From: Bolinopsis microptera
Taxonomy: Eukaryota > Ctenophora > Tentaculata > Lobata > Bolinopsidae
DNA: 64,000 nt
Direction of reading: 5' to 3'
NCBI RefSeq assembly: GCF_026151205.1
Contig: NC_087074.1
Coordinates: 5,952,001-6,016,000 of the forward strand
Below the pieces are notes generated by a model. It had not been told where the DNA came from and did no database searches. It saw only the letters and a program-made list of their open reading frames with translations. A program made the translations under genes and the position numbers. Shown here one piece after another: positions 10,001 through 41,900 of this stretch (positions are counted from its first letter, which is position 1; every line of letters starts with the position of its first letter).

Positions 10001-11391
10001 ACTCCAGTGCTGCATTGGCTCCGAAAGCCCAACAATTGCCACAACCCTGGTTCTTGACTTCTGTCATAATATCAGTGTAGTCCACGAAGTCCTAAACATT
10101 TATTAGCTATTATATATAAAGTATAAGCTTTTTTGAATCAAGGTCGTTGTATTTAAATGCAAGTAAAATTAGAAGGAAACCGAAAAGTGGTCGTGAAAAA
10201 TCCAAACAATATTTGTTATCAACGCACCGGTAGTTCTGCTGCCATAAGATTTACAGGTCGGGTTTGTTGAAGGCTTATTTCAGCTTCACTTGGGGTAAAA
10301 TCCGACATGTTCAATCCCAAATGACTTTGTAACTCGCCTTCTGTCTAAAAAGGTTTGAGTTTTAGAAAATATTTCAGTAACGAACAGAATTAACTTAAAA
10401 TAAAACTGTTTCGTTACTGTAACCAAAATGTAGCCAACTTCAGCCAAAGTTAACATTGGCCGAATTCGGATATATCTTGGTGAAAATAAATCAATTATAA
10501 TACATATTCAATTTCAGCCTTGCAATTGCGTTGTATTTAAATTGGGTACTAGCACAAACATGATCAATGGTGCAGATCACTTGTAAGATCTTCCAGCTCC
10601 ATTAAGAAATATAACCCAGAATGTTTCTCACCTCTAAGAAATATAACCCAGAATGTTTCTCACCTCTAAGAAATAAAACCCAGAATGTTTCTCACCTCTA
10701 AGAAATATAACCCAGAATGTTTCTCACCTCTAAGAAATATAACCCAGAACATGTTTCTCACCTCTAAGAAATATAACCCAGAATGTTTCTCACCTCTAAG
10801 AAATATAACCCAGAATGTTTCTCACCTCTAAGAAATATAACCCAGAATGTTTCTCACCTCTAAGAAATATAACCCAGAACATGTTTCTCACCTCTAAGAA
10901 ATATAACCCAGAATGTTTCTCACCTCTAAGAAATATAACCCAGAATGTTTCTCACCTCTAAGAAATATAACCCAGAATGTTTCTCACCTCTAAGAAATAT
11001 AACCCAGAATGTTTCTCACCTCTAAGGCAAACTCGTTAATTTCAGCTTCCCACTCCTTATCTGCTTCATCATTGTGGACGAACACTTCAGCAGCGTGTTT
11101 TTTGAATACTTGGAAGTGTTCGTTCCCGTCACCGTTCTGGAATGTTACTGATGATAATTATCATGTCATGTCTGTACCTTTCAGACACACCATCGCAAAC
11201 ATAAAATGCTGCGGTAGAGAAAGCTCTGTAAGGATCTAAACATATGATTTTGTTGTTTTACTCACACCCAAAAAGAGTTGTGGAGTCTTGTGGTACTTTC
11301 TCAAAGTTTCTTGATAAAGTTTATTAAAGTCAACATCCTTCGCTGCAGAGGATCCCAACACTACCACGAAGAGTAGAAGAGATGAAAGCAT
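7031..11391 (-). CDS. Cathepsin-like papain-family (C1) cysteine protease with acidic/Cys-rich C-terminal extension
   Basis: Secreted or lysosomal cysteine protease. Exons (high to low): 11391-11266, 11136-11020, 10344-10228, 10091-9978, 9854-9701, 9361-9186, 8861-8746, 8279-8164, 7926-7747, 7591-7348, 7103-7031. All phases close, giving 510 aa. An N-terminal signal peptide (LLLFVVVLGSSA) is followed by an inhibitor-type prodomain. The mature domain starts near LPDFVDYTD. Catalytic residues are visible: Gln135 (KNQG), Cys140 (GNCWAF), His286 (VNHAVNVVGYG), Asn306 (RNSWG). The GCMGGWP motif is also present. The family domain ends at AHYPVIAG, where G|GTTAGT is both a stop (GGT TAG, 8161-8159) and a splice donor. 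Splicing adds an acidic Glu-rich linker and repeats of the type AKSACGAMLDCKG and AKAACEERDDCKG. The donor of exon 4 (GTTGGT) is weak. The gene lies in a repeat-rich neighbourhood with a MITE just inside one intron. Confidence 0.88.
8455..8736. repeat. C-rich tract inside intron 7 of the protease
   Basis: Runs of C separated by TTTCA or TTT (irregular units like TTTCACCCCCCC). The tract ends about 10 bp past the exon 7 donor (8745/8744 on minus). On the transcribed RNA it is G-rich, so it could fold into G-quadruplexes right after a 5' splice site. Proline-rich or glycine-rich ORFs across it are artefacts. Confidence 0.85.
9552..9694. mobile_element. MITE with GGGGCCATCTACTTA ends
   Basis: Terminal inverted repeats GGGGCCATCTACTTAGGACG and CGTCGTAAGTAGATGGCCCC, flanked on both sides by TAA. 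A 3-bp TWA target duplication fits the PIF/Harbinger superfamily. It sits in intron 5 of the protease, only about 6 bp past the splice donor GTAAGT at 9700-9695. Confidence 0.75.
10612..11025 (-). repeat. 32/34-bp minisatellite carrying copies of a splice donor
   Basis: About 13 tandem units. On the minus strand each contains TTAGAG|GTGAGAAAC, which is the real donor of protease exon 2 (exon ends at 11020). Two units carry a 2-bp insertion. The array fills the intron from its first base, so identical donor sites follow the true one every 32-34 bp. Confidence 0.9.
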
Positions 11392-17536: not shown

Positions 17537-20500
17537 CTACATCTTAGATTTCACCAGGCTCTGATAAAGCTTGGTCAGGTTATTGCAGTATTTGATGTGA
17601 GACGGTGCGTCCTTCTTTTTACACTCTGTTGAACAGTAGGGGTGCTTACATTTCTTACATCTGAAACAAGTAGAAAGTGTTGAGTAATCGGGATTTAGTA
17701 AACTAAAAAAAGTAAAGTTGGAGACACATCATTTAAAATTGAAATTCAGAACAGGATAGTTGAAACCATGCTATCATTGAAAACTCTCAACTATTTTAGA
17801 AAACTTCTCATCAGAAAATCTAATTACCGATATTGTAGCTCACCCCCCCCCCCCCCCCCCCCCCCCCCCCCAGCTCATGATAAGTAACCACTAGTTACCA
17901 CTAGTTACCACTAGTTACAAATTGAATTACCGATATTGTAGCTCATGATAAGTAACCACCAGTTACCACTAGTTACCACTAGTTACAAATTGAATTACCG
18001 ATATTGTAGCTCATGATAAGTTTTGTCGTCCTCCTCCTCTGAAGTACAACACACCACACAAAACGGAGGATACTGCATGTTCTTATAATGCTGAATATAC
18101 CTGACGAGAATACTGTTTTTAGAATGTTTTATTCTGGCCCAATTTGTGGAGCTATCTCAACAGTTTGTGTCTCAACAAAGCCTCAATCATCAATTTGAAA
18201 GTTGTCCTATTGTACAATGTACTTGTATGACTGACGCATGCTTCTTACCATATTATATACATTTCGGCCCATTTTATATGTTTGTTCGGTTTGCTGTATA
18301 TTTGCTATTTTGTAAAAGTTTTATATCAAATCATATTTCCAACTTTTAATAAATGTCACTGACCAATTAATTAATTAATTAATTAATTAATTAATGTCAC
18401 TGACCTGGTGAGACACTCGTAATAATATCCAGTAGCTAGTTCTTTAAACTGCTCGTGCCTTATTACGATTAATATGTTCTGTAGGGCGGGGCCCCATTGC
18501 TTTAGGTTCACTAGAGCTTTTACTCTCTGGAACCTTACTTTTGTATCTCGTCGCGTCTGTGGGCATTTTAGTAAGCTTTAGGAACTGGGAACTTGACTTT
18601 TTGGGCTCATAAGAGATTTATCAACAATGTCAAAATGTTGGATAATAAAGGTAGAAAGTGGATTGAAGCTAGAAATATGTTATCTTTGAAAGTACTAACC
18701 AGGGTGTCCTCATCCTTCCTCTCCTCTATAATATCCCAGTAATCCTGCTCAGTCCCCTCTAGTAAACAACGTAACTCTCTCAGAGCTAGAGTAGCGTCCA
18801 CTATAGCGTCCTCATTCCGACTTAGTTCTAGGTTGGAGCTGACCCTGAAGAGGAAGTTAGGTTATCATTCCGACTTAGTTCTAGGTTGGAGCTGACCCTG
18901 AAGAAGAAGTTAGGTTATCATTCCGACTTAGTTCTAGGTTGGAGCTGACCCTGAAGAAGAAATTAGGTTATCATCTGCTGGTTTATTGGTTACAAGAGGA
19001 CAAGTGAGGGTGACTAGTGAGCAGGACTGATAGTTTGGAACACTTCACCATGGTTACCACCATAGTTACCACCATAGTTACCATAGTTACCACCATAGTT
19101 ACCATAGTTACCATAGTTACCATAGTTACCATAGTTACCATAGTTACCATAGTTACTAAGTTACTAAGTTACCATCTAGTTACCATAGTTACCATAGTTA
19201 CTAAGTTACCATAGTTACCATAGTTACCACCATAGTTACCATAGTTACCATAGTTACCATAGTTACCATAGTTACTAAGTTACTAAGTTACTAAGTTACT
19301 AAGTTACCTGTTACTTCTACAGTTAGTGAGGAGGTTCTCAATATCGTACTGTACCTCCGGGTTATCATCGTACTCTCCATGACACCTGTAATTAATTATT
19401 TAATTAGTGACACCTGTAGTTAATTATTTGATTAGTGACACCTGTAATTAATTATATAATTAGTGACACCTGTAATTAATTATTTAATTAGTGACACCTG
19501 TAATTAATTATTTAATTAGTGACACCTGTAATTAATTATATAATTAGTGACACCTGTAATTAATTATATAATTAGTGACACCTGTAATTAATTATTTAAT
19601 TGAAAAATAACAACAAAATTAACCAAAGTTGTCTTGCTCATAGTGCTGAAGTATTGCAGTGTAGTAATAATTGTAGTAGTAGTGCTGCAGTATTGTTGCC
19701 AATCAAGTACGCCCAGTACAGGGTTTCAGAGCAACTGAATGTTAAGACTTTTCTCGAGTGGTAATGGAGAAGGGCCAAGTTATTTAACTGATATCCCCTT
19801 AAGGGTCAATTAAGGTTTTCCAGTATCTTAATATGATCTGTTACCAAAGAATCAAACTAACAAATTTGGCTCTAAAATCAGCCTTCAGAAGATCTTATAC
19901 GGAATGAAACACTAAAAGTTATAACTTATAGCTGTTAGAACAGTGACTGAAGGACTAAAATAGTAATATGTATTAATTTAAACATTGCCAAGGATACCTT
20001 ACACCAAATATATACAGTATTTTATCATACACCTGTGTCAGATTGCAGAGCGCTTACAATTCATAATTTAATAGCCAGAAATAAGCCGGAATTAGACTCA
20101 TGTTACAGAGTTCCATGCTCACAACCAAATATTTTTAACAGAATACTGGTATATATAAAACTTTTGTTCCGTTAATCTGGGGTGCATTTATACGCTGAGT
20201 GAGTTGAGTGCGGTAATTCTCCAGCATTCGAAGGTCCGCCCCGGGCACTGCGCGGCTTGTCACCCCTCGGCAGTGGGCGGCCACCCATCCGCCGACGGAA
20301 GGGCAACCGAACAGTTCCCGGAGCAGCCCGGAGAGTGCTGGCGGGCTGCCAATGTTAACTCTTCACGGTATGAAAGGTGTTCCCCATCGGGTGACCCGTA
20401 CATGGCACAGATAAGACAGTGCATTGGCAATGCCTGTCTTGGATCGTGGTGTATGGGTCACTCTTTTAAACAACTTCTCTTGTATAGATTCAGTTACATT

Positions 20501-23500
20501 ATTGTTTATAAACGATAACTTTTAAGTGCATTGACCTAGACTTTTAACATCTGGCTCTGTCACTGACAGAACATTTCAGGACAATGAACTCAGAATGCTA
20601 ACATTTCGTAGTGTAATGACCAGAAATTGGTATTAACATATTATGTTACTGAGTAGTAGCCTACTCACAAGGAAATATTTTCTACAGAATGCTAGTATAA
20701 ATACAACTTTTGCACAATTCACTCGGGGAGTATCTATACGCTGTTGAGAGGCTCATCCGTTGCCCGTGTTCTCTCGCTGTCCAGGCCGGGGGTCGCGCGC
20801 CCCCCCTCGCTCGGAGCTGGGCGGCCACCCAGCTCCCAGTTCGGCGGTCGCACCTCAACCCAGCCCGGGCGCTTGAGGGACGGAGCCGCGGATGTGCCCT
20901 CTCAACGGTATGCAAGTTGCACCCTATCGGGTAACCTGTACATGACACGAATATCCTCAGAGTGAGTATTTGCGTCGGATGCTTCTCTAGGATCGTGGTG
21001 TATGGGAGACTCTTTTATACAACTGTATCGAGTCGGTTCAATAACGATAAGTGTAGATAATTATCATCACGATCTGTCAAATACCAGTACCACTTTATAA
21101 CTTAGAGCTGGGACACAACCTTAGAAAATCAAAATGCCACGGTTTGAGAAGCACTATCGAAAAATATAATACTAAAAGGGTATCAAAATAAACTAATGAA
21201 AGATAATAATGTAGTAAGATGAAACGACAAAGTATTCTATAAATATATAAGTTCAAGTTATCGATTGAATTAATAACTTATATTAAAGTCGTTATTGTAA
21301 CGGTATATTAGAACCAGACAGAAACAAAGTGTGAAGGGCCTGAACGGAACCCCTCGGTTTCAGTTCCTTGTATTGTGTAACTTTAACTGTAATCATGGAA
21401 AAGATGGACTTGGAAAGTATTAACTACAGGTGGGATGAGATTTATTCTTGGAGCAAAGAGCAGTTGCGGAACTTTGGCAAACCGTACGGAAAGATGACGG
21501 ACATAGCAGATCCGAAGTTTGCGAAATCAGTGAATAAGCCAGAACTTGTTGGTCGGTCTTATGAGTACATTGGCTATTTAATGGAAACTGTGGAGTCGTA
21601 CCGAAATTGCTGCACAACTCTTCAGGCAAAGTTGATTCAGAACCAGGAAACTCTCATCAGCGTTCAGCAGGAGCTCTCTCAGTGTCAGTCCGAGAAACTG
21701 GAATCTATGAAGAAAATCGTGGAAACCTCAGTCGCTGATTCAGTTAAAGAGGAGATTAAGACTTACAGCGCAATTGTCAGCAATTCACAGACGGTAACTG
21801 CCCCAGTTATCTGCCCAGAAGCCCTAAAAAATGTTGTGAAGACCGTAGTCGCAGAAGAGGACCGTAGTCGAAATCTTCTTGTTTTCGGTTTGCCGGAGGA
21901 GGAGCAGGAAGAGTTAGAGGTAAGAATCGGCGAGGTTTTAGAGGAAATAGGGCAGAAACCGAAGGTGGAAGTAGAGCGACTCGGCAAGAAGAAAACTTCT
22001 ACCTGTACTCGCCCAGTGAAAGTCTGCCTGACCAGCTCCTTGATCGTACATCAAATCTTAGCAAACGCTCGGAAATTGCGACAATCAGCCAAGTTTAAGA
22101 CTGTGTTTTTGAGCCCTGACAGATCACTGGAGCAGCGGGAAGCCCGAAAGGAGCTGATTGCCAGCATGAGAGCTAAAGCTTTAGCGGAGCCGGACAAAAA
22201 GTTTTACATTAAGGAGGGACAGATATTCAGCTGTAGTCGCAATTGAGTGTATTTATCAGTACATGTGTGATAATGCTTGTTTTTCAGTGTGAGTGAAGTT
22301 TTAGTTAGTGCTAAGCGGGTGCCTACTAGGCTTTTAACTTTCTATACAGGACTGGATAGTCTTCAGACTGTTTTAAAGCTTATTTTTAGTGCAAGAGTTG
22401 GTTGCTAGGCATTGCATTTATCTAAGCAGCGCCTGTATTCAATAATTAATGAAATCTTATTAGCGGATTTAGGTATATAATTATTGTATATATTATTGTA
22501 TGTATAAATTCTTGAGTAAACATTAACCAGTAAACAAAGCTGGTTCCCAATCAATCATAACACTGCCGTACAGCAAGGACATTCGTATCACTTACATATC
22601 AGTATCACTTACATATTAAATATACTCATTACACATTACACATTTAAGTTTTAACATTTCTCATAAGTATTGGTGGTCGATATGAAGGATATTCTATGCT
22701 GCATAAAGCATTCAATCCCTCACAGGATTAAGGACAATGAACTCAGAATGCTAACAATTCGTAGTCTAATGACCAGAAATGAGTAGAACATATTACTTTG
22801 CAGAGTAGTAGCCTACTCACAACGAAATATTTTCCACAGAATACTAGTATAAATACAACTTTTGCACAACTCACTCAGGGAGTATCTATACGCTGAGTCG
22901 AGGGTGGGGTGCAGCAGTCCCCAGTACTCGAAGGTCCGCCTTAGTCATTGCCCGTCCTCCTAGTCCTCAACGATGAACGGTAGTAGGTTTGAAATACTAG
23001 TTAAACCTACGTCCGCGCGTTTCCGGGGCGGGCTGGAGAATGCTGGCAGGCTGCCAAAGTCAACTCTCCTCGGTATGCAAGGTGCACCCTATCGGGTAAC
23101 CTGTACATGACACGGATATTCTTAGAGTGAGTACTTGTGCGGGTACCTCTCTGGCAAGGATCGTGGTGTATGGGAGACTCTTTTATACTTTTATACAACC
23201 TTTCAGGAATTCAAAAACAACAGCAAAAATGTAATAAGTAAATAGTGGTTAGGTTTTAACTTACTTGAGTTTGAGATCCATTAGCATATCAATTGCTTTA
23301 TCGTATTCCACTAATGCCAGCTGGAACTCTTTATTTTTATGAAACGAATTTCCTGGGAATAAATTGTTGAGCTATATAATATCACAATGACAACTGATAG
23401 ATATGCATGGTAATTAAGCGGTTGTTCATGGTACTGGTAGTTGAACACATAGAAATGATAATTCTAAGGGGTTATACTTATATGAAACGCTCACCTCTTA

Positions 23501-26500
23501 TTTTAACTTGATCAATTTTATTAATATCATTTCTAACGGACTGTCTGGATCCCCCGTATCTGAGAGCATTTTTAACAGCGTTAAGAGGTTTGACCACCAT
23601 ATCCCAGTATTTTGTGTAGATAGAGTGGTAGAGCGGCATAAGTTTGCCTATTTCTACTTTTTCGTTCTGGTAGGTAACTTCTAGACAACCACAGTCTGCT
23701 GTGAAGGGAACTTCGTATGATACCTGGTGGTGATTGAGGTTGTCAGAGATCAGTCCATTAGTAGTCATATTCATGTATCATGATAATCTAATGTCTTTAT
23801 TAAAGTGACATTGACATAGTAGTAGTATAGCTCTTTCTTTATAATTTTAGATTCAAACCAACGACTCCTATTTCAACAACTCAAACTAACACCTTAAAAC
23901 CAACTCTAACGAACACCTTAAAACCAACTCTAACTAACACCTTAAAACCAACTCTAACTAACACCTTAAAACCAACTCTAACTAACACCTTAAAACCAAC
24001 TCTAACTAACACCTTAAAACCAACTCTAACTAACACCTTAAAACCAACTCTAACTAACACCTTAAAACCAACTCTAACTAACACCTTAAAACCAACTCTA
24101 ACTAACACCTTAAAACCAACTCTAACTAACACCTTAAAACCGACTCTAACTAACACCTTAAAACCAACTCTAACTAACACCTTAAAACCAACTCTAACTA
24201 ACACCTTAAAACCAACTCTAACTAACACCTTAAAACCAACTCTAACTAACACCTTAAAACCAACTCTAACTAACACCGTAAAACCAACTCTAACTAACAC
24301 CTTAAAACCAACTCTAACTAACACCTTAAAACCAACTCTAACTAACACCTTAAAACCAACTCTAACTAACACCTTAAAACCAACTCTAACTAACACCTTA
24401 AAACCAACTCTAACTAACACCTTAAAACCAACTCTAACTAACACCTTAAAACCGACTCTAACTAACACCTTAAAACCAACTCTAACTAACACCTTAAAAC
24501 CAACTCTAACTAACACCTTAAAACCAACTCTAACTAACACCTTAAAACCAACTCTAACTAACACCTTAAAAACCAACTCTAACTAACACCTTAAAACCAA
24601 CTCTAACTAACACCTTAAAACCAACTCTAACTAACACCTTAAAACCAACTCTAACTAACACCTTAAAACCAACTCTAACTAACACCGTAAAACCAACTCT
24701 AACTAACACCTTAAAACCAACTCTAACTAACACCTTAAAACCATCATACCTCAGCAGGGACTAGATCGAAGAGAAGAGGGTTACAGTTGGCGTTATCTTT
24801 CAGCCACTTTACCCAGAATCCCACCAGTTGACTACTGGCGTGTTTAGATACGAGTCTAGTTATATTGTTCAGGGTAAAGGCCTGACTGCCCGCGTCAAAG
24901 TAGGGGTTTATCTTGTTTTCTCCGATTGTACGCAGGAAGAGTTGAGCTGTACCAATGGGTAGCGCCTGTAGTTTGTCTGGAATACGAGTATGTACGTTAC
25001 TAATGGTTACCAATCACCATGGTAACCAATAACCTTGGTGTTAGGTCAGGATAAGTTACTGTACAAATGAATAATGCTGCCTAAAATGAATAGCGGAGCG
25101 ACAAAATAATCCCAACAATTACTCACTGGAGGTAATAATCTCAACAATTACTCACTGGAGGTAATAATAGATAGGGCCATCTTGTGGTAAAATTCGTAGA
25201 AGTTGCTGACGACTGTATTAGCGGTATTTACAGCCCTGTAGCTCTCAACCAACTGTAGGTTATCCGTCCGTCCGGCTGCAATATGTTAACAATAATACCA
25301 CATAAGGTAACATAGCTATAAGATAACATTCCATTACATTATTCAATCCAATACGATTTAAAACTCTCACAAAGTGTCCCATCCGCGCTATTATCCCAAG
25401 TTGATGATTATTATGTCGAACTTAGGTATCTGTTGTATTTTATTTATCCGTTATATTTTACCGTAGCTATGATATCTATGATACTAGAAGCCCACATTTA
25501 TCAAGTTCCCTAAGTTTAATAACCAATGACATATCAACTATAATGTATATATTTGATAAATTTTTCTCGACATTTAACGTACCCAAAAAATACTTAAAGT
25601 TTTGAAAAGACAATTAATTTACAATACATTTATTTACCTAAAAGTAGAGTATTCTTGATGTTATAATAATGATTACCTAAAAGTAGAGTATTCTTGATGT
25701 TATAATAATGATTACCTAAAAGTAGAGTATTCTTGATGTTATAATAATGATTACCTAAAAGTAGAGTATTCTTGATGTTATAATAATGATTACCTAAAAG
25801 TAGAGTATTCTTGATGTTATAATAATGATTACCTAAAAGTAGAGTATTCTTGATGTTATAATAATGATTTACCTAAAAGTAGAGTATTCTTGATGTTATA
25901 ATAATGATTTACCTAAAAGTAGAGTATTCTTGATGTTATAATAATGATTTACCTAAAAGTAGAGTATTCTTGATGTTATAATAATGATTGAGGTCCGCCA
26001 GACAGTGTACGAACTGTACGATAGTGTCGTCTCCTTCAGTAGTGTTGTAGAGCATGGGGAGCGCGTCCAGTACTACTCGGGAAATCAATCTGTACAGGCA
26101 CACACGATTAACAACAACATTAACAACATTAACAACATTAATAACACAGACTTAACAACAACAGTCTACCCGATTTAACAGAAAAAACTCAGTTTAATCA
26201 AGCACTAATTTCAATATTGAGCTAATTTCAACATGTTATACTTTATCACCTGGTGCCGTATTTACCTGGTGCCGTATTTACCTTGTGCCGTATTTACCTG
26301 GTGCCGTATTTACCTGGTGCCGTATTTACCTGGTGCCGTATTTACCTGGTGCCGTATTTACCTGGTGCCGTATTTACCTGGTGCCGTATTTACCTGGTGC
26401 CGTATTTACCTGGTGCCATATTTACCCGGTGCCATGTTTACCTGGTGCCGTATTTACCCGGTGACGTATTTACCTGGTGCCATATTTACCCGGTACCATA

Positions 26501-28786
26501 TTTACCTGGTGCCGTATTTACCTGGTGCCGTATTTACCTGGTGCCGTATTTACCTGGTGCCGTATTTACCTGGTGCCGTATTTACGTTCCTTTACTTTGT
26601 CCATAAGAAGCCGGGATGTTTTGAGGACCTTATCGTTAAACAACAAGACCTCAAACTTATTAAGAGTGTTCGCTCTGAAGGTAAGTAGTCCAACAAATAG
26701 ACAGGGAACCAAAGCAGACCAGGACCCTTGGCTGAAGTCTGCTGTTAGGAGGAATATTACCTGAAAGGGAGGACGTTAGGAAAGTGGAATTAGCGGCTGA
26801 GTCAGTCAGCAGCCAAGTCAGCAGCCACTTCCTGACTTCCAGCCTGACGGAGGCGAAATTATAGAAAATCATACATAGATGTCCATCAACTGATTAATAA
26901 ATTAACAATCAGTATAATTGAAGTGAAGGAAACAATATAAACCCACGTGGTCTAACAACCCTGAGTCGTTCATAAACTCCCGGAGATCTCTTGGCGAGGT
27001 GCCAGTACCAGTAGAGGCCGTGTCTTTCCACCAGTACCGACTGATTATACCGGTCACGTAGTCCAGCATCTTATACCACATCTGTCCTGTGCTCAGTCTC
27101 ATGGTCTCCTGAAGGAACGTTTAACAGGATCACCAGGAAGAAGAGGGAGATTACTTATGGTAATACTGGTAAGTTTAGTCGTACGACGTCAACTGAAACA
27201 AGGGCTAGGTTGGGATTAAATTTTGATTATCATAATCACTTTTATAATGTTCATTTGTAAACCTTACTTCGGACAGAAGGTTGTAAAGAGCGCTGAGAGC
27301 AATAACAGCGTTGTGAACCTTACCTCGGACAGAAGGTTGTAAAGAGCGCTGAGAGCAATAACAGCGTTGTAAACCTTACCTCGGACAGAAGGTTATAAAG
27401 AGCGCTGAGAGCAATAACAGCGTTGTAAACCTTACCTCGGACAGAAGGTTATAAAGAGCGCTGAGAGCGATAACAGCGTTAGGAGATGTGACCCCCTTTG
27501 TAGAGGGCAGATGAGGAGACATCATGTGTTCTGACATGTACTCCCAGTGCTCTAAGCTCACTCTCATGAGGGCTGGTGGTAGTTTACTCTCGTGTCTCTG
27601 GGGGGAGGGAGGCGGTAACATCTGCCAGATCTCTTATGGGTAGATAACTGTACTTTATTGTGTGGTTCTGAGGATTTAGTCGTATTTTCTATCATTGTTA
27701 TATAATGAGAAGTTCACTTTTTCTGTCTTTTACCTTTCTTTTATCAGTTTTAATCTCGATTGTCACAGCAAACTCAAACATCTTCCCCTTGTTTGTCTTT
27801 GCTGCTTTCAGTTTCTGAGATCATAATTTATCAGTTGGATGGGGAAACAAGTTTGAAAACTCTCATGTTTGATTTAAGAAGATGTCAAGTGAAGCTATGA
27901 AAATGTAAATTGAAAAAAAAACAATGAATACGAATACTAACGATTAAAAACTGAACTTACAGTATCAGAAATACAATCAGGCAGCACAAACATCTTCTGG
28001 GATTGCCTAAAATACTGAGTTTTAGTAACCGCACTGATAGGGTTAGGACCACTGAAGCGGATGCTGGCGAATATCTCCGAGTCTTCCTGGCAGAGTGCCC
28101 CGGGAAAATAGCACTTTATAACCACGTCATATGAGACTGAGTTGGAGAACAAGTTGTGGGGCTCCAAGTGAATAGACCTGAGAAAGTGAAAGTGGAAGTT
28201 AAGGGTCTTTCAGATCGAGTGGAGAACAATTTATGGAGATGCAAAAGAATAAACCTGGGGAAGGTATAGTTTGTACAGTTTGTTCCAACCGTAAGAAGAC
28301 AAAAAACATCCCTGATATGATAAAAACACATTAATAATCACAAACAAAAAGCTCACCTACCAAGGAACATCCTTTACAAAGACAATAGAGTCTACAAAGA
28401 GTTTCTTGTTATCTGTGAGCTGTTTCATGGAGAACTCAAACTTGCACTGGCCGTACGGTGACGTATCTGAGAAACAAGTTCTTATAAATCAGTTAGATAA
28501 AAGCTATTAGTGGTGCTCTCATTTCACAGTGGGCTCTCATTTCAGTGATTAAGTTATTTGAAGCAGTGGACATCCCAAATTTCTGTGCTTTGACGGAGAT
28601 AATTACTCCAATCTATATTATTTAAATTCAAAATAAAGATTTACAAGATATACCTGGAACCCTCTTGAGGAGTTTGTTAAATGAACGTATCTTGGTGGAC
28701 GATTCATTCTCTTTTCGGATTTGTTTCTTTAAATCCTTGAGGAACAATTTCACGGTCTCACCGTTGCTTGACACAGCGCTGGCCAT
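17537..28786 (-). CDS. Unrecognised 764-aa protein with C-terminal TPR repeats and MYND zinc finger
   Basis: Exons (high to low): 28786-28654, 28466-28361, 28177-27961, 27597-27436, 27108-26947, 26760-26570, 26089-25953, 25275-25156, 24976-24750, 23723-23495, 23352-23265, 19385-19308, 18844-18700, 18478-18405, 18100-17999, 17660-17537. Phases close to 765 codons with GT-AG at every junction. Residues about 560-645 form two TPR-like helices (ELALVEYDKAID type, then NRVSSNLELSRNEDAIVDATLAL). The last about 55 residues are a MYND finger: C-x2-C, CKKCKHPYC, STEC, then H-x3-C. MYND fingers bind proline-rich peptides. The N-terminal 550 residues match nothing I know. No SET domain is visible. Eight or more introns begin or end in tandem repeats. 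The 3.9-kb intron between TPR exons holds a retrotransposon fragment. The exon 10 acceptor (23723) is the least certain. Confidence 0.75.
17847..17871. repeat. Poly-C run of 25 bases
   Basis: Homopolymer in the last intron of the TPR-MYND gene. Its exact length is probably unreliable in any assembly. Confidence 0.9.
17878..18000 (-). repeat. About 65-bp duplication spanning the donor of exon 15
   Basis: The segment around the exon 15 donor (CTACAATATCG|GTAATTC on minus, exon end 17999) is copied into the intron about 65 bp away, with GTAACTAGTG triplets between. Both copies keep the GTAATTC donor. Confidence 0.8.
18812..18972 (-). repeat. 53-bp repeat, three copies, spanning the acceptor of exon 13
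   Basis: Each unit holds the last intron bases CTTC(C/T)TCTTCAG and the first exon bases GGTCAGCTCCAACC. The real exon starts at 18844. Two upstream copies therefore present decoy acceptors followed by true exon sequence. Confidence 0.85.
19041..19307 (-). repeat. GTAACTA/GTAACTATG short tandem repeat starting at a splice donor
   Basis: On minus the array begins at the donor of exon 12 (AACAG|GTAACTTA, exon end 19308) and continues as GTAACTTA, GTAACTATG and GTAACTATGGTG units for about 265 bp. The donor core itself is the repeated motif. Confidence 0.8.
19381..19600 (-). repeat. 28-bp repeat, about 7 copies, containing the acceptor of exon 12
   Basis: On minus each unit reads ...AATTAATTACAG|GTGTCACT. 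The last copy is the working acceptor (exon starts 19385). The other copies supply identical CAG|GTGTC junctions every 28 bp. Confidence 0.85.
20150..20480 (+). repeat. Diverged first copy of a TATA-bearing repeat
   Basis: Shares blocks with 20577-21020 and 22727-23190: TATATAAAACTTTTG, a TACGCTGAG core, a GC-rich middle, ACCCGTACATG, and GGATCGTGGTGTATGGG followed by CTCTTTTA. Much more diverged than the other two. Confidence 0.65.
20577..21020 (+). repeat. TATA-bearing direct repeat, copy B
   Basis: About 440 bp, matching 22727-23190 in the same orientation. Contains AGTATAAATACAACTTTTGCAC (TATA-like) followed by a GC-rich block and ends near GGATCGTGGTGTATGGGAGA. Together with copy C it brackets the ORF1-like gene, like LTRs or retrotransposon promoter monomers. 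Confidence 0.75.
21395..22246 (+). CDS. Non-LTR retrotransposon ORF1-like protein
   Basis: Intact 283-aa ORF from the ATG at 21395. N-terminal third unknown. Residues about 75-120 are a coiled coil (QETLISVQQELSQCQSEKLE). Then comes an RRM-like stretch with RSRNLLVFGLPEEEQEE and RPVKVCLTSS, and a C-terminal module with FLSPDRSLEQREARKEL and a closing YIKEGQIFS. This order is typical of the nucleic-acid-chaperone ORF1 of CR1/L2-like elements, which packages retrotransposon RNA. No endonuclease or reverse transcriptase follows in this intron. It lies antisense inside the TPR-MYND gene, between 440-bp direct repeats. Likely a broken or non-autonomous element with an open ORF1. Confidence 0.7.
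   Translation: MEKMDLESINYRWDEIYSWSKEQLRNFGKPYGKMTDIADPKFAKSVNKPELVGRSYEYIGYLMETVESYRNCCTTLQAKLIQNQETLISVQQELSQCQSEKLESMKKIVETSVADSVKEEIKTYSAIVSNSQTVTAPVICPEALKNVVKTVVAEEDRSRNLLVFGLPEEEQEELEVRIGEVLEEIGQKPKVEVERLGKKKTSTCTRPVKVCLTSSLIVHQILANARKLRQSAKFKTVFLSPDRSLEQREARKELIASMRAKALAEPDKKFYIKEGQIFSCSRN
22727..23190 (+). repeat. TATA-bearing direct repeat, copy C
   Basis: Direct repeat of 20577-21020 starting AGGACAATGAACTCAGAATG, with the same TATA-like AGTATAAATACAAC and the same GGATCGTGGTGTATGGGAGA end. It lies downstream of the ORF1-like gene. Confidence 0.75.
23881..24743 (-). repeat. 24-bp minisatellite, about 36 units, starting 6 bp past a splice donor
   Basis: The unit on plus is about AAAACCAACTCTAACTAACACCTT, almost perfectly uniform. 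It begins right after the exon 9 donor (GAG|GTATGATGG, exon end 24750) and fills the intron nearly to the next exon. Its eight-codon unit gives an artefactual 231-residue minus ORF (FKVLVRVG repeats). One unit carries an extra A near 24570. Confidence 0.92.
25100..25160 (-). repeat. 31-bp duplication of a splice donor
   Basis: The sequence ATTATTACCTCCA|GTGAGTAATTGTTG occurs twice on minus. The first (exon end 25156) is the exon 8 donor and the second is an exact copy downstream. Confidence 0.8.
25630..25985 (-). repeat. 39/40-bp minisatellite, about 9 units, each with exon tail plus donor
   Basis: On minus each unit is the last about 34 bases of exon 7 (CATCAAGAATACTCTACTTTTAG without break) followed by GTAAT or GTAAAT. 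The true exon ends at 25953. Eight further identical AG|GT junctions follow. Confidence 0.92.
26245..26585 (-). repeat. 16-bp minisatellite, about 21 units, each with CAG|GTAAAT
   Basis: On minus the unit is GTAAATACGGCACCAG. The exon 6 tail CGTAAATACGGCACCAG (end 26570) is itself the first unit, so the splice junction CAG|GTAAAT is repeated about 20 times into the intron. Plus-strand ORFs across it are artefacts. Confidence 0.92.
27263..27490 (-). repeat. 56-bp repeat, four copies, of exon 4 tail plus donor
   Basis: Each copy holds the exon 4 3' end (CGCTCTTTATAACCTTCTGTCCGAG is split here only for description: CGCTCTTTATAACC then TTCTGTCCGAG) and GTAAGG. Each copy also has TTATTGCTCTCAG upstream, which could act as an acceptor, so cryptic 25-nt exons are possible. 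The real exon ends at 27436. Confidence 0.88.
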
Positions 28787-29699: not shown

Positions 29700-32600
29700 C
29701 TAAGTCTGGGGCTCAGCTACCTTGCTGACAAGCAGAAAGGGAGGGATGCTGACGTTAATAAACTTCCGGTCCTCCCGCTCAAACAAGTAGGTGCCCCACA
29801 TGTGCCCTGCACTGGACCTCAGACTGACCAGAGAACTGTACTGGAAACACTGCCCTGATTTCAGCATTGGCTCCTGAGGTGTAATTAGCATGTGATTAGG
29901 ATGAGGTGTAATTAGCATGTGATTAGGATAGAGGTGGAATTAGCATGTCATTAGGATGAGGTGTAATTAGCATGTGATTAGGATAGAGGTAAAGGAGTAG
30001 TAGTCAATTTAAGGGATTCAGATGGTTTGTTGAACTAATTTATCACTTATAAAACAAAGAGTGATGAAAGTGTGAAAGACTCATCATCAAATTGCTGAAC
30101 TTTACGGTGATACACGTGATGCCCATATAAGGTCAGATACACGGTGTACACATCTGATTTATCAAGGATCGTTGCAATTATAGGTCCTATGTTTATAAGG
30201 TCTCATTGGTTTCAGAGCACTGATTAAGTTTCACTAACTTTCGCAATGTAAATTAAAACATTGCCTGGTATTTCTCTTAGACACAAAATGTGTGTGAAAC
30301 CTTAATTAGTTTACAGGACAGTACAAATAATACTACATAACACGAATGATTGGAGATAAAATTAGAGATGAAATCTGTAGAATGTAGAATGTAGAATGTA
30401 GAATGTAGAATGTACAATGTACAATGTACATGGTATGTGTGTAGTGTGTACTCATAAAGTGACAAATACTGGCACTAACTCTCACCTGGCCGACGACCCC
30501 TTTGCCAGTGACCGACTCTTTGTTGTCAGCATTGCTGAAAATACACCAAGTTCTCTCCCGTAGCTGCACGGTTATGTCCCCCACATTCTCCATTAAAATA
30601 CTGTACCTCCACCAGTGCTCTTTATTTGGTGTCTCCGACTGTAGAAATAGAGTTCGGGTCAAACTGGGTAATTTGGTCTCTGATTCCTAGGAAGCGGTGG
30701 GTCTCCGGGAACATTGCTAGGTACAGTAAAACCCCGATTTACAGTAAAACCCCGATTTACCGCGGAATTTGGGGAAAGGAAACATCCGCGGTAAATCGGG
30801 GTTTTTAAAAAATTTACATTATAGATGTTAAGCCCTATTTGGGGGAAAGAAGATGGCCGCGGTATATCGGGGTTTGCGGTAAATTGGGGCGCGGTAATTC
30901 GTGGTTTTACTATACTAGGGCCGGAGAGTATTAGTATACTTTCGAAGCAAGTTGCAAATCAGCGAATGTAATTTTATTTTTAATTTAAGATTACAAGGGT
31001 CCTTAACTCGCGTGTACAGGAAAAGGAAGTGCCACTACCAAATGGAGTGACTGCATAAGTTATCATGTTATTCTTGATTTTCACAACAATTAATATTGCG
31101 CATGTGGCATGACGTCTCTAATTTCTCAACAAGGATGATAGTTGATACTTGATACCATACCCGCAAATATTTGTTTCAACCCGGCAACGAGAGGCAGCTC
31201 GGTGCGAGGATCAGTAGGTTATAAGTCTACAACTAATCCCACTTTAACAACAGGTTTGAATGACATGCCGCATGCCTGTTTTATTTAGAGTATGTGACAA
31301 TATATTTCGTAGTAAATAAAACGCGCGCGCGCGCGTAGTACGCGTTGATCCAGCGCTAGAAATGCTATTTTAAGGTCGGAGCGCGTTACAAATCAGCTAC
31401 CGCAATATTAATCATTGCCATTGACACAGTGCGCGCGCACGTGATACAACAGCAAAAACGGATGAAACTGAAAGTCTTTATTTCAAGCAATTTCAACAGA
31501 TTTGAATCAACATACCCTGCATCCCATGTAAAAACTGTAAACAGTTATCTTAACACCATTGGTAGTTTGACTGTGAACGTCCCTCAATCGCAAGCAGTCA
31601 AAGTTGTCTTCATGGAACTGATGCAGCATGTTCGTTGAGTAATAAGAAGCCAATCCATCTGGGAGAGGATATCTTTAGTTTATAAACAATTCGATGCATA
31701 CTAATTTGTTGATTCTTGCCACAAATCGTGAGTGCTAACTATAAGAAAGACACTAGACAGTCAAATTCTAAATCCGTCGTACTTTGGTCGTTTTTCTTCT
31801 CCAGGAATTTCTGGAAGAGGTTATGCTGTATCGGATCTCTGATAGACTCGGAGTGCTCATAAGGCAGGACATCCTCGTGTGAAATGTAATCTATTCCAGG
31901 TATTGTGTAAAACTTGTTGTCAGAATTTTGTCCCAAGAACGTAATTCCTTCCCTCTGTGATACCTGATTGTTGTTAATATTTGTTAATCAGTCGATTAGT
32001 TAATTTTTAATAATTTAATTTTTAAATTGATTAATGATTGTATTATAATATAGTTAATTATATTCAATGATAGTTTGATAACTTGACAACTACATACGAA
32101 TACAGTTGAAAGAAGGCAGTCAGCAACATACACGGCCAAACACATGGTAATAGTTAAAAACTTACGATGGGACAATCTCTGAAATCGAGTAGAACTTGAT
32201 AATATATTAAAGTCTGATAGCTCTCCTTAGTAAATCCAGGGATATCGTCAACTTCTCCTTTCTTTAGCATACTGAAGTATTTTCTTTTCTTTTATACTGC
32301 TCATGTTAAAATGCGTTTAATTACCTCCATAAACTGTTGATACAACGCTATTTATAATTAATAAAAGAATTCACTCAATTACACTTTTTATAACATTCAA
32401 ACCTATCAAATAGTGTTGGGAAAGCTTTGTTATTACGACTAAATAGACGAGCTACCCAAGGAAACAGTACAACGCCCCGATAGTCCAGTTTCTTGTGCAG
32501 AAACATCTGAAACAAACGTGAGTACAAAATACTGTAATAATTATTACTTTACGTAAGTACAGAAAACTATTATTATTCTTATCTTTAGGCACACCTCTTA

Positions 32601-35996: not shown

Positions 35997-38900
35997 ATGG
36001 CGAACCGTATGTTCTTCTTCATAGCCCTACCAGGCACCATTATATGCTTTATAGCATACACTATGGTAGTGTTCACACCAAAATATATGACCTACGATGC
36101 ACCACTACCCAGTGGAATGAAGGTAAGCTATATAGCAAAATGTTGGTATCATTAATTTACTTGCTTTTCCTGAAATTTCAACTGTCTAATACATAGATGG
36201 TGTTATAAGGGGTCGTTCAAATATTATGTAATCACTTTTTGAACAGTTTTTACGTAATATGTGAACGACCCCTAACCTAAACTCTGCTAAACTACTGATG
36301 ATATCTGAGTAAAATCATTCTTTTAGGACGGAGACAAAGTTCAGAGTTACACAATGGGAGCTATTCAGAATTGTACTAAGAATGGGACATTCAGTTCTGT
36401 CGCTGTTAAAGCTAAGGTAGCACCGAAGAAAGCTACAAAGAAGAAGGCAGTGGCGATTGTAAGAAGGTCACTAGAGGAAACAGGGGGAGGAAAAGAAGTT
36501 AAGGAATTTGTTAAATCAGAAGTTCCGATGGTGGAAGTGGTAAAGAGTGAAGAAGCGTCCGTGGGAGCAGGAATTGAAGAGGAAGCGGAAGTGGATGTTC
36601 CAACTATGGAAACTGTTCCAATAGAGAAAGTGGAAGAGGTAGAGGAGGAAGTAGTGGAAGAGGAGGAGGAAGCTGCAAAGGTAGAACCAGCCAAAAAGGC
36701 AGCAGCACCAGCCAAAAAGGCACCAGCACCAGCACCAGCCAAAAAAGCACCAGCCAAAAAGGCAGCACCAGCTAAGAAAGCACCTGCCAAAAAAGCACCA
36801 GCCAAAAAAGCAGCTGCCAAAGGAAAGAAAACAGCTGCAAAAGGAAAGAAGACGGTTGTAGTGAAGGGACCGAAGGGACCACCTACTGACCCCACAAAGG
36901 TTCATTTCGGCAAATGGGATTGTCATCTCCTCAACTGGAAAAGTATGTACCACGCTGTATATAATACACAGTTTTATTATATATTTTGTACATAATATAT
37001 GACATAAAACCAACGTACACAAAAAATCGTCGATTTTTGTTCAGTTTATTTTTTATATTTAGCAAATATGTATTATCTGAGGAATAATTACAGTTTCGAT
37101 GGTTTATATAGATTTTGCCAGATTTCAATCCATAAGAACTTAAATTGCATATTTACTGGTAGAACCGGCAATACACTCACGGGATGCATAATTTGGTTGT
37201 TTTTGATGAATGGTTTTTTGATAGTTTTAGTAAACCCTGGAATTGTAAACCCAGGGCCGTCTCCCATAGGTGTTAGAGTTGGGAATGGTAATAAATTGAA
37301 TGTTTACTTTCAGAATGTTCAAGGTCTCATCCCTTTTGGTGAACTGAACAATGCCCATCCAATGATTGATACCACTAAATGTCTTGAAGTGTCGACTTAT
37401 CTTAATGAGGCTAAGATAGATATTGCAATACTTAACGAAACCTGGTTTAAGAGTTCTATTGCTGATAGTGAATTTCTGCACCCTGACAGATATAAGATAT
37501 TTCGCTCTGATAGATCGAAGAAAACTCATCCACCAGATCCTTCTAATCCAACCCGGTTTAGGAGGAATGGTGGAGGGGTCATGATTGCAGTGAGAGCAGA
37601 CCTTGATCTAACTTCAAAGGAAGTTCATCTCAAGTATGGTGCAGAAATTCTTGCTGTGGAATTTAAGACATCCACTGGAATTAAGTTTGTTGTATGCACA
37701 TGTTATCGTGTTGGTACACTGGGCTCCGCAAATCATGAAAAAATTGTTGAGTCTTTGAAAACTCTTCTCAGAAGAAGAGGACTGAGTAAAGTCTTCATAC
37801 TAGGAGATTTTAACCTGACCGGAGTTTCCTGGTCTACCCTGGCCAGCTCCTGTCCTATTGAGCAATCTTTTGTTGAATCTTTTGTTGATCTAGGCCTTCA
37901 ACAATGTGTGTTAACACCTACCCACTGCAAAGGCAAAACACTTGACCTATTGCTCACAAACTCTGTGTCAAATATTAATGACCTAATGGTAGGTGAGAGA
38001 GATAGTGCTTGCAAGTCTGACCACTTCCCCATCAATTTTAAGATCAACGTTAAAGTTGGTAGGAAGAAGCCAGTCAGGCGTATGTGCTATAACTTTAAGA
38101 CTGTGAACTGGGAGAGGCTAAACCATGAACTCCGACACACGAATTGGGATGCATTGCTCAATGGCACAGAACCTGAAATTGGATGGAAAAAATTTAAGGA
38201 CAAACTTTTTAATGTCACAGATAAATTTGTTAAAAAATGCTCTGTCAAGACTGATGGCCAAGATCCATGGTTTGACTCGGAGTGTTATGATGCATGGCGT
38301 AAGAAAGTGAGATTACATAAAGAAAGGCATAAAAGTGATAGAGCTGAAATTGCATTCTCCCTTGCTAGGAAAAATTTCAAAAATGTGGTTGCTCAAAAAA
38401 TGAGGGAAACATTAAATGAATCTGATGATAGTGCTTTAATAACAAAAAAATTTTGGTCCTATGTCAAATCGAAGACAGCTAGTCAGCGGATCCCTGAGTT
38501 TGTAAGCCACAAAGGCACTGTCCGCAACTGCCCTGAAGACCAGGCCAACCTATTTAATGACTTTTTCTTCGAGCAGTTCTCTGAGGCATCAACTTATGAC
38601 ATAGATATAGATTACTCTAATGATTGGCGCTTTGATATTGAATTTGACCACAGAAGGGTTCGCAAAATCCTTTCCAATATTAATGCTAATAAAGCTTATG
38701 GACCTGATGGTATCCATGGGAAACTTTTGAAAAACTGTGCGGTTGGGCTCGCATACCCTATATCAATACTTTTTCATTCATGCTACAACATTGGGACACT
38801 ACCAAGGGAGTGGAAACTGGGGCACATTGTACCAATATTCAAGAAAGGGGATAAAAATGAGGTTTCAAATTATAGGCCAATTTCTCTTACATGCTTAATC

Positions 38901-41900
38901 ACAAAAGTTCTTGAACGCATAATAAGAGATGAGTTATTGGCACTTACTAATGGCATGATCAATGACAAACAGCATGGTTTCCGAGCTGAGAGATCTTGTG
39001 CAACTAATCTTGTAGGACTGTGCGACAGCCTAGCGCTCTCACTGAATGAAAATATGAGAACAGATGTAGTCTACTTTGATTTTGCCAAAGCATTTGACTC
39101 GGTTAACCATGATCTTATATTATTTAAGCTAAAGAGCAAATTTGGTATTGATGGGAGGCTACTGAAATTCATCACTGATTATCTAAGAGACAGGCAACAA
39201 CAGGTCTTGATAAGTGGCAAGTTTTCTTCTATGAGAAACGCCCAGTCTGGTGTACCTCAAGGGTCAATTTTGGGACCATTGCTGTTCATTATGTTCATTG
39301 ATGATATATCAGTGGGGATTTCACCAGGCACACAACTGTCACTGTATGCCGATGATACTAAAATTTGGCGTAAGATTGTTTCGGAGTCTGATATCCTGCG
39401 ACTGCAGAAGGACATTGATTATCTCCATGACTGGTCACTTTCTAATAAAATGAGATTTCATCCCGACAAATGTAAGGTCCTCACCGTCGCAGGAAGGATA
39501 TCCGAAACAGTTTCCCTCCTTAGTGTCCTACCACTCTTTAACTTTGTATACTCCATGGGAAGAATCACACTTGACTATGTTGATCATGAAAAGGATCTGG
39601 GTGTAATTGTGACATCAAATCTCGATTGGAAAGATCAGTGCTCCAAAGTCCTTTCTAAGGCAAACCAAAAATTAGGCATGGCGAGAAGAAATTGTTATTT
39701 TGTCCAAGACGTAAATCGTCGTAGAGTACTGTATCTCACTTTAGTGAGGAGCCTATTTGAGCATTGCTCGGTTATATGGAGACCAGTCACAAAATCCCAG
39801 ATAAGCAAGCTGGAGGGCCTCCAAAAGCGTGCTATTAAGTGGATTCTTCACGAGGAGTATATGAGTTATCCACCATCCACATACATTCAAAAATGCAGAC
39901 AGCTGAAGATTATGCCGATTGAAGACCGCTTTGACTTCTTGGATCTCATCTTCTTCTTTAAAATTGTGAAGCAACATATACCTGTCACTTTACCCTCATA
40001 TTTGCAACCATTTCAAGGCCACTCAAGGCTCAGAAATAGTCACATGGACTCTCTATGTTTTGTAAGCTCTATCTCACCTCGAGCAAGCTCCAACGCTTTT
40101 GCCAAGAATTTCTTCTATAGGACCCACACTAAGTGGAATCACATTCCTCTAGATATCCGTGAGATAGAGAGTATCACTGATTTTAAAAGTAAACTTTCCA
40201 CTTACATGTGGGGGAAAATTATCCCGGTGGATTCGGACTCTGAACTTGACTATTCAATAGAAACAAATCCGTAAAATAGTTTATTCAAGATTATCTATTC
40301 TTGCTGTCTGCATTCACATATTTCTCAATTTCATCTCACAGCACAATATTTTATGAATTGATTGAATGGGTGTGTGATTTTGTTTAAAGTAACTTATTAC
40401 AATTTTATAAGGGCCCATGCTTGTGCAGGAGCTGCATTTGCACTCAATATCTGTGTTTTGGTGACCCTCAGGTCCTTTGGTTACATACATCCGAGACAAT
40501 TTCAATTTTGACAATCCATGCTTAGAGGACAATATTATATTTAACTAATTCATTGTGTAAACTTGTATGTAATTGACTGATTTGAAAGATTTCAATAAAA
40601 AAAAAAAATTCAAACTTTCAAACAGATATCCAAAAGGAGCGACTGGTCTAGATGTTATACTGTCTAATGTATAAAATAAAAGTCGAAATTTAACTACGTA
40701 ATTTTGGCCCATCTGCAAACGGATGCTTCAGAGGACTGCACATATAGTTTATCCCTCAGTATTAACGATAGCATTGCCGTAAACTGTTTATTGTTTAAAG
40801 CTTATATCAAGATCAACTATTGTATTTCAGTGCTTACCAACCAGCTCTTCCTTGCCTACCTTTCTACGACAGCAGTTGCTTGGTTCACACTACTTGGTGC
40901 TTTCTTGGTATCATTGGTAAAGGTCATCTTGGACTGGGTACCCCATGACAAAATCAAGGCTGCTAGAAGTGAGTCTATATATGAAGTATAAGTTTCACTT
41001 TTACAATAAAGATAATAATAACGACTTAACTTTTTACAACGAATTAGAGATAATGAACCGGAACTTAATGAGTTAAAATATTTTCAGTTCTTTGCAGTAG
41101 AAACTTTGGTCTTGGTTTGATGTCTGCTCACATAACAGCAGGTAAGCCCATATTACTGATTGCTGCTTTAAATTTTCATTATCTCCTACTCTATTCTGAA
41201 GTTAGATGATCTACAATTTAAAATGTTTTATAACAGAATCTAGACCAGGTACAATGTAATATTGGGGGGGGTGTCATGTCCGTCTATGTCCGCCTATGTC
41301 CTGTCCTTTTTGGATTCTATGAGACAACGGACGTGTTTTTTGGGACATTGGCGGACACGGACGGACATTGGCGGACTCGGACGGACATTGGCGGACTCGG
41401 ACGGACATTGGCGGACTCGGACGGACATTGGCGGACCCGGACGGACATTGGCGGACTTGGATGGACATTGGTGGACATTAGCGGACAAACATTTTGAGGA
41501 CTGAAGAGTACTGAAGAGTACTGAAGAGTACTGAAGAGTACTGAGGAGGATGGCTGAGAAGGATGGCTGAGGAGGATGGCTGAGGAAGATGACTGAGGAG
41601 GATGACTGAGGAGGATGACTGAGAGGGAGGAGAAGGATCAGGAAGACCCAGGAGGAGGAGGAGGAGGAGGACCCAGAAGGAGGACCTAGGAGGAGGAGGA
41701 GGAGAACTGAGGAGGATGACTGAGGAGGAGGAGGACTCAGGAGGAGGACTGAGAAGGAGGAGGACTCAGGAGGATGGCTGAGGAGGATGGCTGAGGAGGA
41801 TGATTGAGAGGGAGGAGGAGGAGGAAGAGGAGGAAGAGGACTGAGGAGGAGGAGGAGAAGGACTGAGGAGGAGAAGGAGGACCCAGGAGGAGGAGGACCC

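What the first reader, a model, noticed from the sequence alone, without database searches (positions are those of the whole stretch)
17537..28786. Minisatellites repeatedly sit exactly on splice junctions of one gene
In the TPR-MYND gene at least eight exon borders adjoin or lie inside tandem arrays: donors of exons 4 (56 bp), 6 (16 bp), 7 (39 bp), 8 (31 bp), 9 (24 bp), 12 (about 8 bp), 15 (about 65 bp), and acceptors of exons 12 (28 bp) and 13 (53 bp). In most, the unit contains the working AG|GT or AG itself. The protease exon 2 donor and POLDIP2 exon 7 acceptor show the same. The unit lengths and sequences are unrelated, so this is a recurring process, not one repeat family. The known idea that tandem duplication of an AGGT-bearing segment creates introns fits; here the duplication seems to have run on into arrays. 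Intron growth would be nearly invisible to selection because any donor-acceptor choice in the array can be spliced.
Basis: partly seen in the sequence, partly recalled or inferred. Interest (0 to 1): 0.88.

Follow-up and report, generated by a model that had tools for sequence, protein, structure and literature searches.

The report
Minisatellites seated on ctenophore splice junctions
In one gene of a comb jelly, stretches of stuttered DNA repeatedly start exactly where coding parts end, apparently because the end of an exon was copied over and over into the neighbouring intron, a pattern known before from amphioxus.

Summary
The gene is NCBI LOC134812524 of the ctenophore Bolinopsis microptera. 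It has 17 exons; residues 6-742 of the NCBI protein match my model exactly. Of its 13 tandem arrays (period 5 or more), 9 sit on a splice junction: 7 donors, 2 acceptors. Uniform placement that allows straddling gives 2.4 (1 of 20,000 draws reached 9). Eight of the nine enter the exon, one by a single base, so the exon end is the likely template.

The same anatomy occurs in unrelated genes: kinesin motifs INTSLSELG and SKLTR, a WD40-like exon. In 248 kb of other loci, donors touch arrays 14 of 200 times against 4.9 simulated (0 of 300 runs). Homology-called introns give a weaker excess (11 of 39 arrays against 5.4-6.4, P 0.01-0.03). A genome-wide motif-pair count was not decisive.

These resemble the 'mirages' of amphioxus genes (PMC3087553). 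Intron creation is not shown: no array in the gene touches both ends of its intron. The claim that any site choice works fails: 0 of 69 alternative sites keep the full frame.

The parts
17537..28786 (-).
   Evidence: residues 6-742 of NCBI P0001 identical, which covers the junctions from the E3 donor on; E1-E2 have a counterpart in homolog P0002
27255..27480 (-). 56 bp array, 4 copies, straddles E5 donor (45 bp of exon)
26248..26585 (-). 16 bp array GTAAATACGGCACCAG, 21 copies, straddles E7 donor (last 16 exon bases = unit)
25634..25989 (-). 39 bp array, 9 copies, straddles E8 donor (37 bp of exon)
25105..25168 (-). 29 bp array, 2.2 copies, straddles E9 donor (13 bp of exon)
23877..24743 (-). 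24 bp array, 36 copies, starts 6 bp after E10 donor; unit does not contain the working donor
19380..19601 (-). 28 bp array, 7.9 copies, straddles E13 acceptor by 6 bp (TTACAG|GTGTCA in the unit)
19046..19308 (-). 9/12 bp array, begins at last base of E13 (donor)
18812..18974 (-). 53 bp array, 3 copies, straddles E14 acceptor (33 bp of exon)
17872..18021 (-). 68 bp array, 2.2 copies, straddles E16 donor (23 bp of exon)
10603..11026 (-). 32 bp array, 13 copies, straddles donor of protease exon 2 (11136-11020, gene-finder exon), 7 exon bases in unit
29875..29990 (-).

Best explanation
These are exon/intron-border minisatellites ('mirages'). A short segment that spans a splice junction, or begins just inside it, was tandemly duplicated and then grew by slippage or unequal exchange into the intron. 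The exon copy nearest the exon body stayed the coding copy; the further copies became intron. Shown: position on junctions; exon letters in most units; one copy only in the annotated protein; near-identical copies. Inferred: slippage or microhomology as the origin; that the introns are older than the arrays; that the exon-proximal site is the one used in RNA. The junction preference beyond what tolerance explains is present in my samples but about 2-3 fold, and its cause is unknown.
For: Nine of 13 arrays in the gene on junctions. Eight of the nine enter the exon, by 45, 37, 33, 23, 16, 13, 6 and 1 bp. At E5, E7, E8, E9 and E14 the residues concerned align without a gap to a 44% identical homolog (P0002): NAVIALSALYNLLSE, ERKYGTRLISR, LNHYYNIKNTLLLA, LSIITSNKLQ, CRSNRVSSNLEL (near E13 and E16 there are small gaps), so there the exon is the older part and one copy is kept. 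Same in other genes: kinesin INTSLSEL(G) 33 bp x 52, kinesin SKLT(R) 53 bp x 2, kinesin SSRSHA 38 bp x 2, WD40-like SGDKSGNI 29 bp x 4 or more. Simulated uniform neutral duplication: donors 14 of 200 observed, 4.90 expected, 0 of 300 runs; acceptors 10 of 212, 4.04 expected, 0 of 300.
Against: Straddling arrays alone fit the neutral expectation in the control loci (donors 4 against 2.6, 83 of 300 runs; acceptors 2 against 1.8, 171 of 300); the excess is in arrays that abut the junction. With strong arrays only, donors 8 against 2.9 (1 of 120 runs), acceptors 4 against 2.4 (27 of 120, not significant). Homology-called introns alone: 11 of 39 arrays against 5.4-6.4. Motif-pair counts are not decisive: CAGGTAAGT 420 against 1 for its mirror, AGGTGAGT 1085 against 231, but an arbitrary permutation GAGTAGTG gives 1156 and its mirror 545. 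No RNA was seen.
Confidence: 0.75

Rival explanations
1. The arrays are fossils of intron birth: tandem duplication of an AGGT-bearing exon segment made the intron (Rogers model) and ran on into an array.
For: Many units carry AG|GT or GT...AG. In L053 exon letters AAGTGGGGATAAAAGTGGTAAT recur from the third base of the intron.
Against: No array of the gene touches both junctions of its intron: 9 arrays, 9 junctions. Introns hold other sequence besides the array. In kinesins 0 of 8 array-bearing introns, against 9 of 39 others, share profile position and phase with a paralogue (recent copies dropped; positions approximate): in the direction of young introns but too few to tell.
Confidence: 0.12
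2. No junction preference: minisatellites fall everywhere, and those in exons are purged; the gene is an extreme draw.
Against: Donor excess 14 of 200 against 4.9 (0 of 300 runs), 8 against 2.9 with strong arrays (1 of 120), 11 of 39 arrays against about 6 in homology-called introns.
Confidence: 0.2
3. Arrays are kept by selection because repeated donors or branch/acceptor signals strengthen or regulate splicing.
For: Abutting arrays carry the excess; several acceptor-side units contain CTAAT, branch-point-like by recall.
Against: Splice letters are not better kept among copies than others (34 of 945 against 124 of 6159 changed; register imperfect, so weak either way). All 69 alternative sites tested break the frame, a cost rather than a benefit.
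Confidence: 0.08
4. Assembly artefact or wrong gene model.
For: Arrays are the hardest parts to assemble; no reads were available here.
Against: The NCBI protein agrees letter for letter from the E3 donor on and a homolog aligns along its length; many unrelated arrays with different units.
Confidence: 0.03

Closest known systems
Amphioxus 'mirages' (Adh3; globins BflGb6, BflGb9; PGBD5; TnC)
   Same: Minisatellite-like tandem duplications of exon/intron borders, both 5' and 3', units of 10 to about 160 bp, often with AG/GT; reported as not interfering with regular splicing (PMC3087553, passages; PMC3902484, passages).
   Different: Here a ctenophore; nine junctions of one gene; up to 112 copies at an acceptor called by my gene finder (L022); rate estimated against a null; RNA and polymorphism not tested.
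Intron gain by tandem duplication of AGGT segments (Rogers model; ATP2A1; fission yeast SPOG_01682 with a 24 bp exonic repeat; potato RdRp)
   Same: Duplicated exon segment with AG|GT, in fission yeast with an intron across several copies (PMC4974935, passages).
   Different: There the intron lies between copies; here the array touches one end only and intron gain is not shown.
Internal tandem repeats changing gene structure of human paralogs (PMC2812944; outline only)
   Same: Minisatellite expansion inside genes.
   Different: Not described as seated on junctions in the outline that I saw.

Membership tests
Mirages (exon/intron-border minisatellites) | Tandem unit spans an exon/intron border | tested here: met
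   Eight of nine arrays enter the exon, by 1 to 45 bp
Mirages (exon/intron-border minisatellites) | Both 5' and 3' borders affected | tested here: met
   7 donors, 2 acceptors in the gene
Mirages (exon/intron-border minisatellites) | Regular mRNA splicing undisturbed | not testable with these tools
   Only proteins: NCBI P0001 keeps one copy
Mirages (exon/intron-border minisatellites) | Copy number varies between haplotypes | not tested
   The search for a second copy did not complete
Intron gain by tandem duplication (Rogers) | Copies of the unit at both ends of the intron | tested here: not met
   9 arrays touch 9 junctions, one each
Intron gain by tandem duplication (Rogers) | Intron absent from relatives | not testable with these tools
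   No related genome held; kinesin paralogues inconclusive

The most novel reading that the evidence does not exclude
In ctenophores, splice junctions, donors above all, are preferred birthplaces of minisatellites genome-wide (several percent of donors carry one), so introns grow from their ends, and the spliceosome must pick the exon-proximal site among dozens of near-identical ones.
Probability: 0.4. Interest if true: 0.75.

Novelty: new member of a known kind. Interest (0 to 1): 0.5.

Why it matters
If it holds genome-wide, one rule (exon end copied into the intron) links minisatellite birth to intron growth in a phylum far from amphioxus. It also offers natural test genes for an open question: how one donor is chosen when up to dozens of near-identical ones follow and the other choices truncate the protein.

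Tried and rejected
Annotation-free tests gave little. Donor strength of 154 array units against array-free segments: 7 against 3.8 and 4 against 1.25 at two of the five thresholds, weak. Genome-wide motif pairs looked strong for CAGGTAAGT (420 against 1 for its mirror; singles 2462 against 1212) and AGGTGAGT (1085 against 231; singles 8474 against 7650), but the permuted motif GAGTAGTG (1156, mirror 545) shows that such counts are ruled by a few large arrays; acceptor motif TTTTCAGGT 56 against 21, singles not counted. A first null that forbade straddling gave P 6e-5; I dropped it as too easy. Constraint on splice letters among copies: none seen, register crude. Rfam on the window: no match. 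Of 13 distinct arrays in the listed part, four with several copies were fetched without regard to genes: by eye, three follow an apparent coding exon (L053, L055, L056), one shows none (L054). Early gene models were wrong around E5-E7 and lacked E4, corrected with P0001 and P0002; the Pfam and protein searches used the model.

Full report
What it is. The window lies on contig C3 of a 264.65 Mb genome. A search with the assembled protein (model) returned NCBI LOC134812524 isoform X2 of Bolinopsis microptera on a contig of 21,284,423 bases, the length of C3, so the organism is this ctenophore. The gene runs on the minus strand from 28786 to 17537 in 17 exons coding for 817 residues. Residues 6-742 of the NCBI protein are contained letter for letter in the model; this covers the junctions from the E3 donor on. 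The first two exons are not in that isoform but have a counterpart in a second homolog, P0002 (803 aa).

The observation. Of 32 junctions, eight lie inside a TRF array, one lies 7 bp and one 10 bp from one. With periods of 5 or more there are 13 arrays in the gene; nine touch a junction (seven donors, two acceptors) and each touches one. The nine arrays with score 100 or more all touch a junction. Eight of the nine enter the exon, by 45, 16, 37, 13, 1 and 23 bp at donors and 6 and 33 bp at acceptors; the E10 array begins 6 bp inside the intron.

Direction of copying. At E5, E7, E8, E9 and E14 the residues encoded by the exon copy align without a gap to the 44% identical P0002; near E13 and E16 small gaps lie close by. 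Both proteins hold one copy. So, at least at those five, the exon end is the old part and the array is made of its copies. The first unit of the 16 bp array is the exon's own last 16 bases.

Consequence for splicing. In the nine arrays I tested alternative donors (score 1.5 or more) or acceptors (score 0 or more) one at a time: 0 of 69 keep the full-length frame; the E10 array offers none. Even the 39 bp array does not keep it, because three of its steps are 40 bp.

Elsewhere in the genome. I took exon matches of kinesin (PF00225), TCP-1 (PF00118) and myosin head (PF00063): 109, 35 and 73. 204 of these 217 went into my lists and 182 lie in loci that I fetched. Introns were called from neighbouring matches: 103, of which 100 remain after dropping two loci that are recent copies (L012, L015); one myosin exon with the same range as its neighbour was left out of the chain. 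Clear cases: in a C12 kinesin (L022) the coding letters of AINTSLSEL(G) with the donor recur 52 times over 1.75 kb, and two further acceptors of the locus, called by the gene finder only, adjoin arrays of 112 and 18 copies; in a C5 kinesin SKLT(R) with its donor (L013); in a C13 kinesin SSRSHA (L035). The TCP-1 and myosin loci show fewer: in 18 TCP-1 introns one acceptor 4 bp from an array, in 35 myosin introns one donor at 8 bp and one acceptor at 4 bp, none straddled.

How much above chance. Homology-called introns: 39 intronic arrays, 11 touch a junction; 6.4 expected when each array may be reseeded anywhere in its intron including across the junction (P 0.026), 5.4 when pooled over introns (P 0.014); for strong arrays 6 of 16 against 2.9 (P 0.04) or 2.7 (P 0.04). 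Then a small gene finder trained on these introns (157 of 200 known junctions recovered; array bases not scored as coding) was run on the same loci (248 kb; 200 donors, 212 acceptors) and on 300 simulations in which arrays were collapsed and re-grown at random seeds: donors 14 against 4.90, acceptors 10 against 4.04, neither reached in 300 runs (a first set of 60 agrees). The excess lies in abutting arrays (donors 10 against 2.3, acceptors 8 against 2.2); straddlers alone are as expected (4 against 2.6; 2 against 1.8). With strong arrays only, the donor excess stays (8 against 2.9; 1 of 120) and the acceptor excess does not (4 against 2.4; 27 of 120). In the window outside the gene: donors 1 of 15 against 0.35 (29 of 100), acceptors 3 of 17 against 1.3 (2 of 100). 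Both tests use the same loci, which are not a random draw of the genome, and some gene-finder exons will be wrong.

Genome-wide motif counts were tried as an independent test and are not decisive (see Tried and rejected). Of four arrays picked from the CAGGTAAGT list without regard to genes, three follow an apparent coding exon by eye.

Known or new. The anatomy is that of amphioxus mirages, described for Adh3 and globins (PMC3087553, passages read) and PGBD5 and TnC (PMC3902484, passages read). Intron gain from tandem AGGT repeats, including a 24 bp multi-copy case in fission yeast, is summed up in PMC4974935 (passages read). I found no report of it for ctenophores in three searches of the held library (listings), in passages of PMC12221973 ('tandem repeat' absent) or in passages of the Hormiphora genome paper PMC8527503, which notes that Tandem Repeats Finder marks 13% of that ctenophore's genome and that introns there are rich in indel differences. 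Subscription papers are not held. So this is a new member of a known kind, in a distant phylum and unusually dense in one gene.

What stays open: why abutting arrays are in excess, whether the introns predate their arrays, and how the exon-proximal donor is chosen.

Noticed in passing
L014 389-509 and 992-1113: Two neighbouring predicted exons with nearly identical 3' ends, each followed at once by the same 11 bp array (GTAACAGCTGG): a border array that seems to have been duplicated with its exon.
   Followed up: no
L030 2207-2255, L040 1123-1166, L041 4217-4253; window 19380-19601, 29875-29990: Acceptor-side arrays in different genes have units rich in CTAAT/TAATTA, branch-point-like by recall, shortly before the AG.
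   Followed up: no
window 19386-23264: The long intron 12 holds an open frame of about 280 codons (21397-22246, + strand) and blocks near 20190-20480, 20720-21030 and 22870-23190 that look alike by eye, perhaps mobile elements; no Rfam match.
   Followed up: no
window 37008-40271 and 52224-53735: Open frames of 1088 and 504 codons that look like retroelement endonuclease/reverse transcriptase (by eye).
   Followed up: no
window 41343-44929: About 3.5 kb of GAGGAGGAC-type repeats with larger repeated blocks.
   Followed up: no
window 17843-17871: A run of 29 C directly beside the E16 donor array.
   Followed up: no
G000:C3:9154012-9154203 and 9154255-9154485: Two adjacent myosin-head exons with nearly the same profile range (105-167 and 102-167), candidates for mutually exclusive exons.
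   Followed up: no
G000:C10:1535228-1536996, C8:17904441-17904966, C1:2508249-2509875: Very regular tandem arrays whose unit holds a strong donor word (CAGGTAAGT every 32 or 11 bp, AGGTGAGT about every 46 bp); whether they adjoin exons was not looked at.
   Followed up: no
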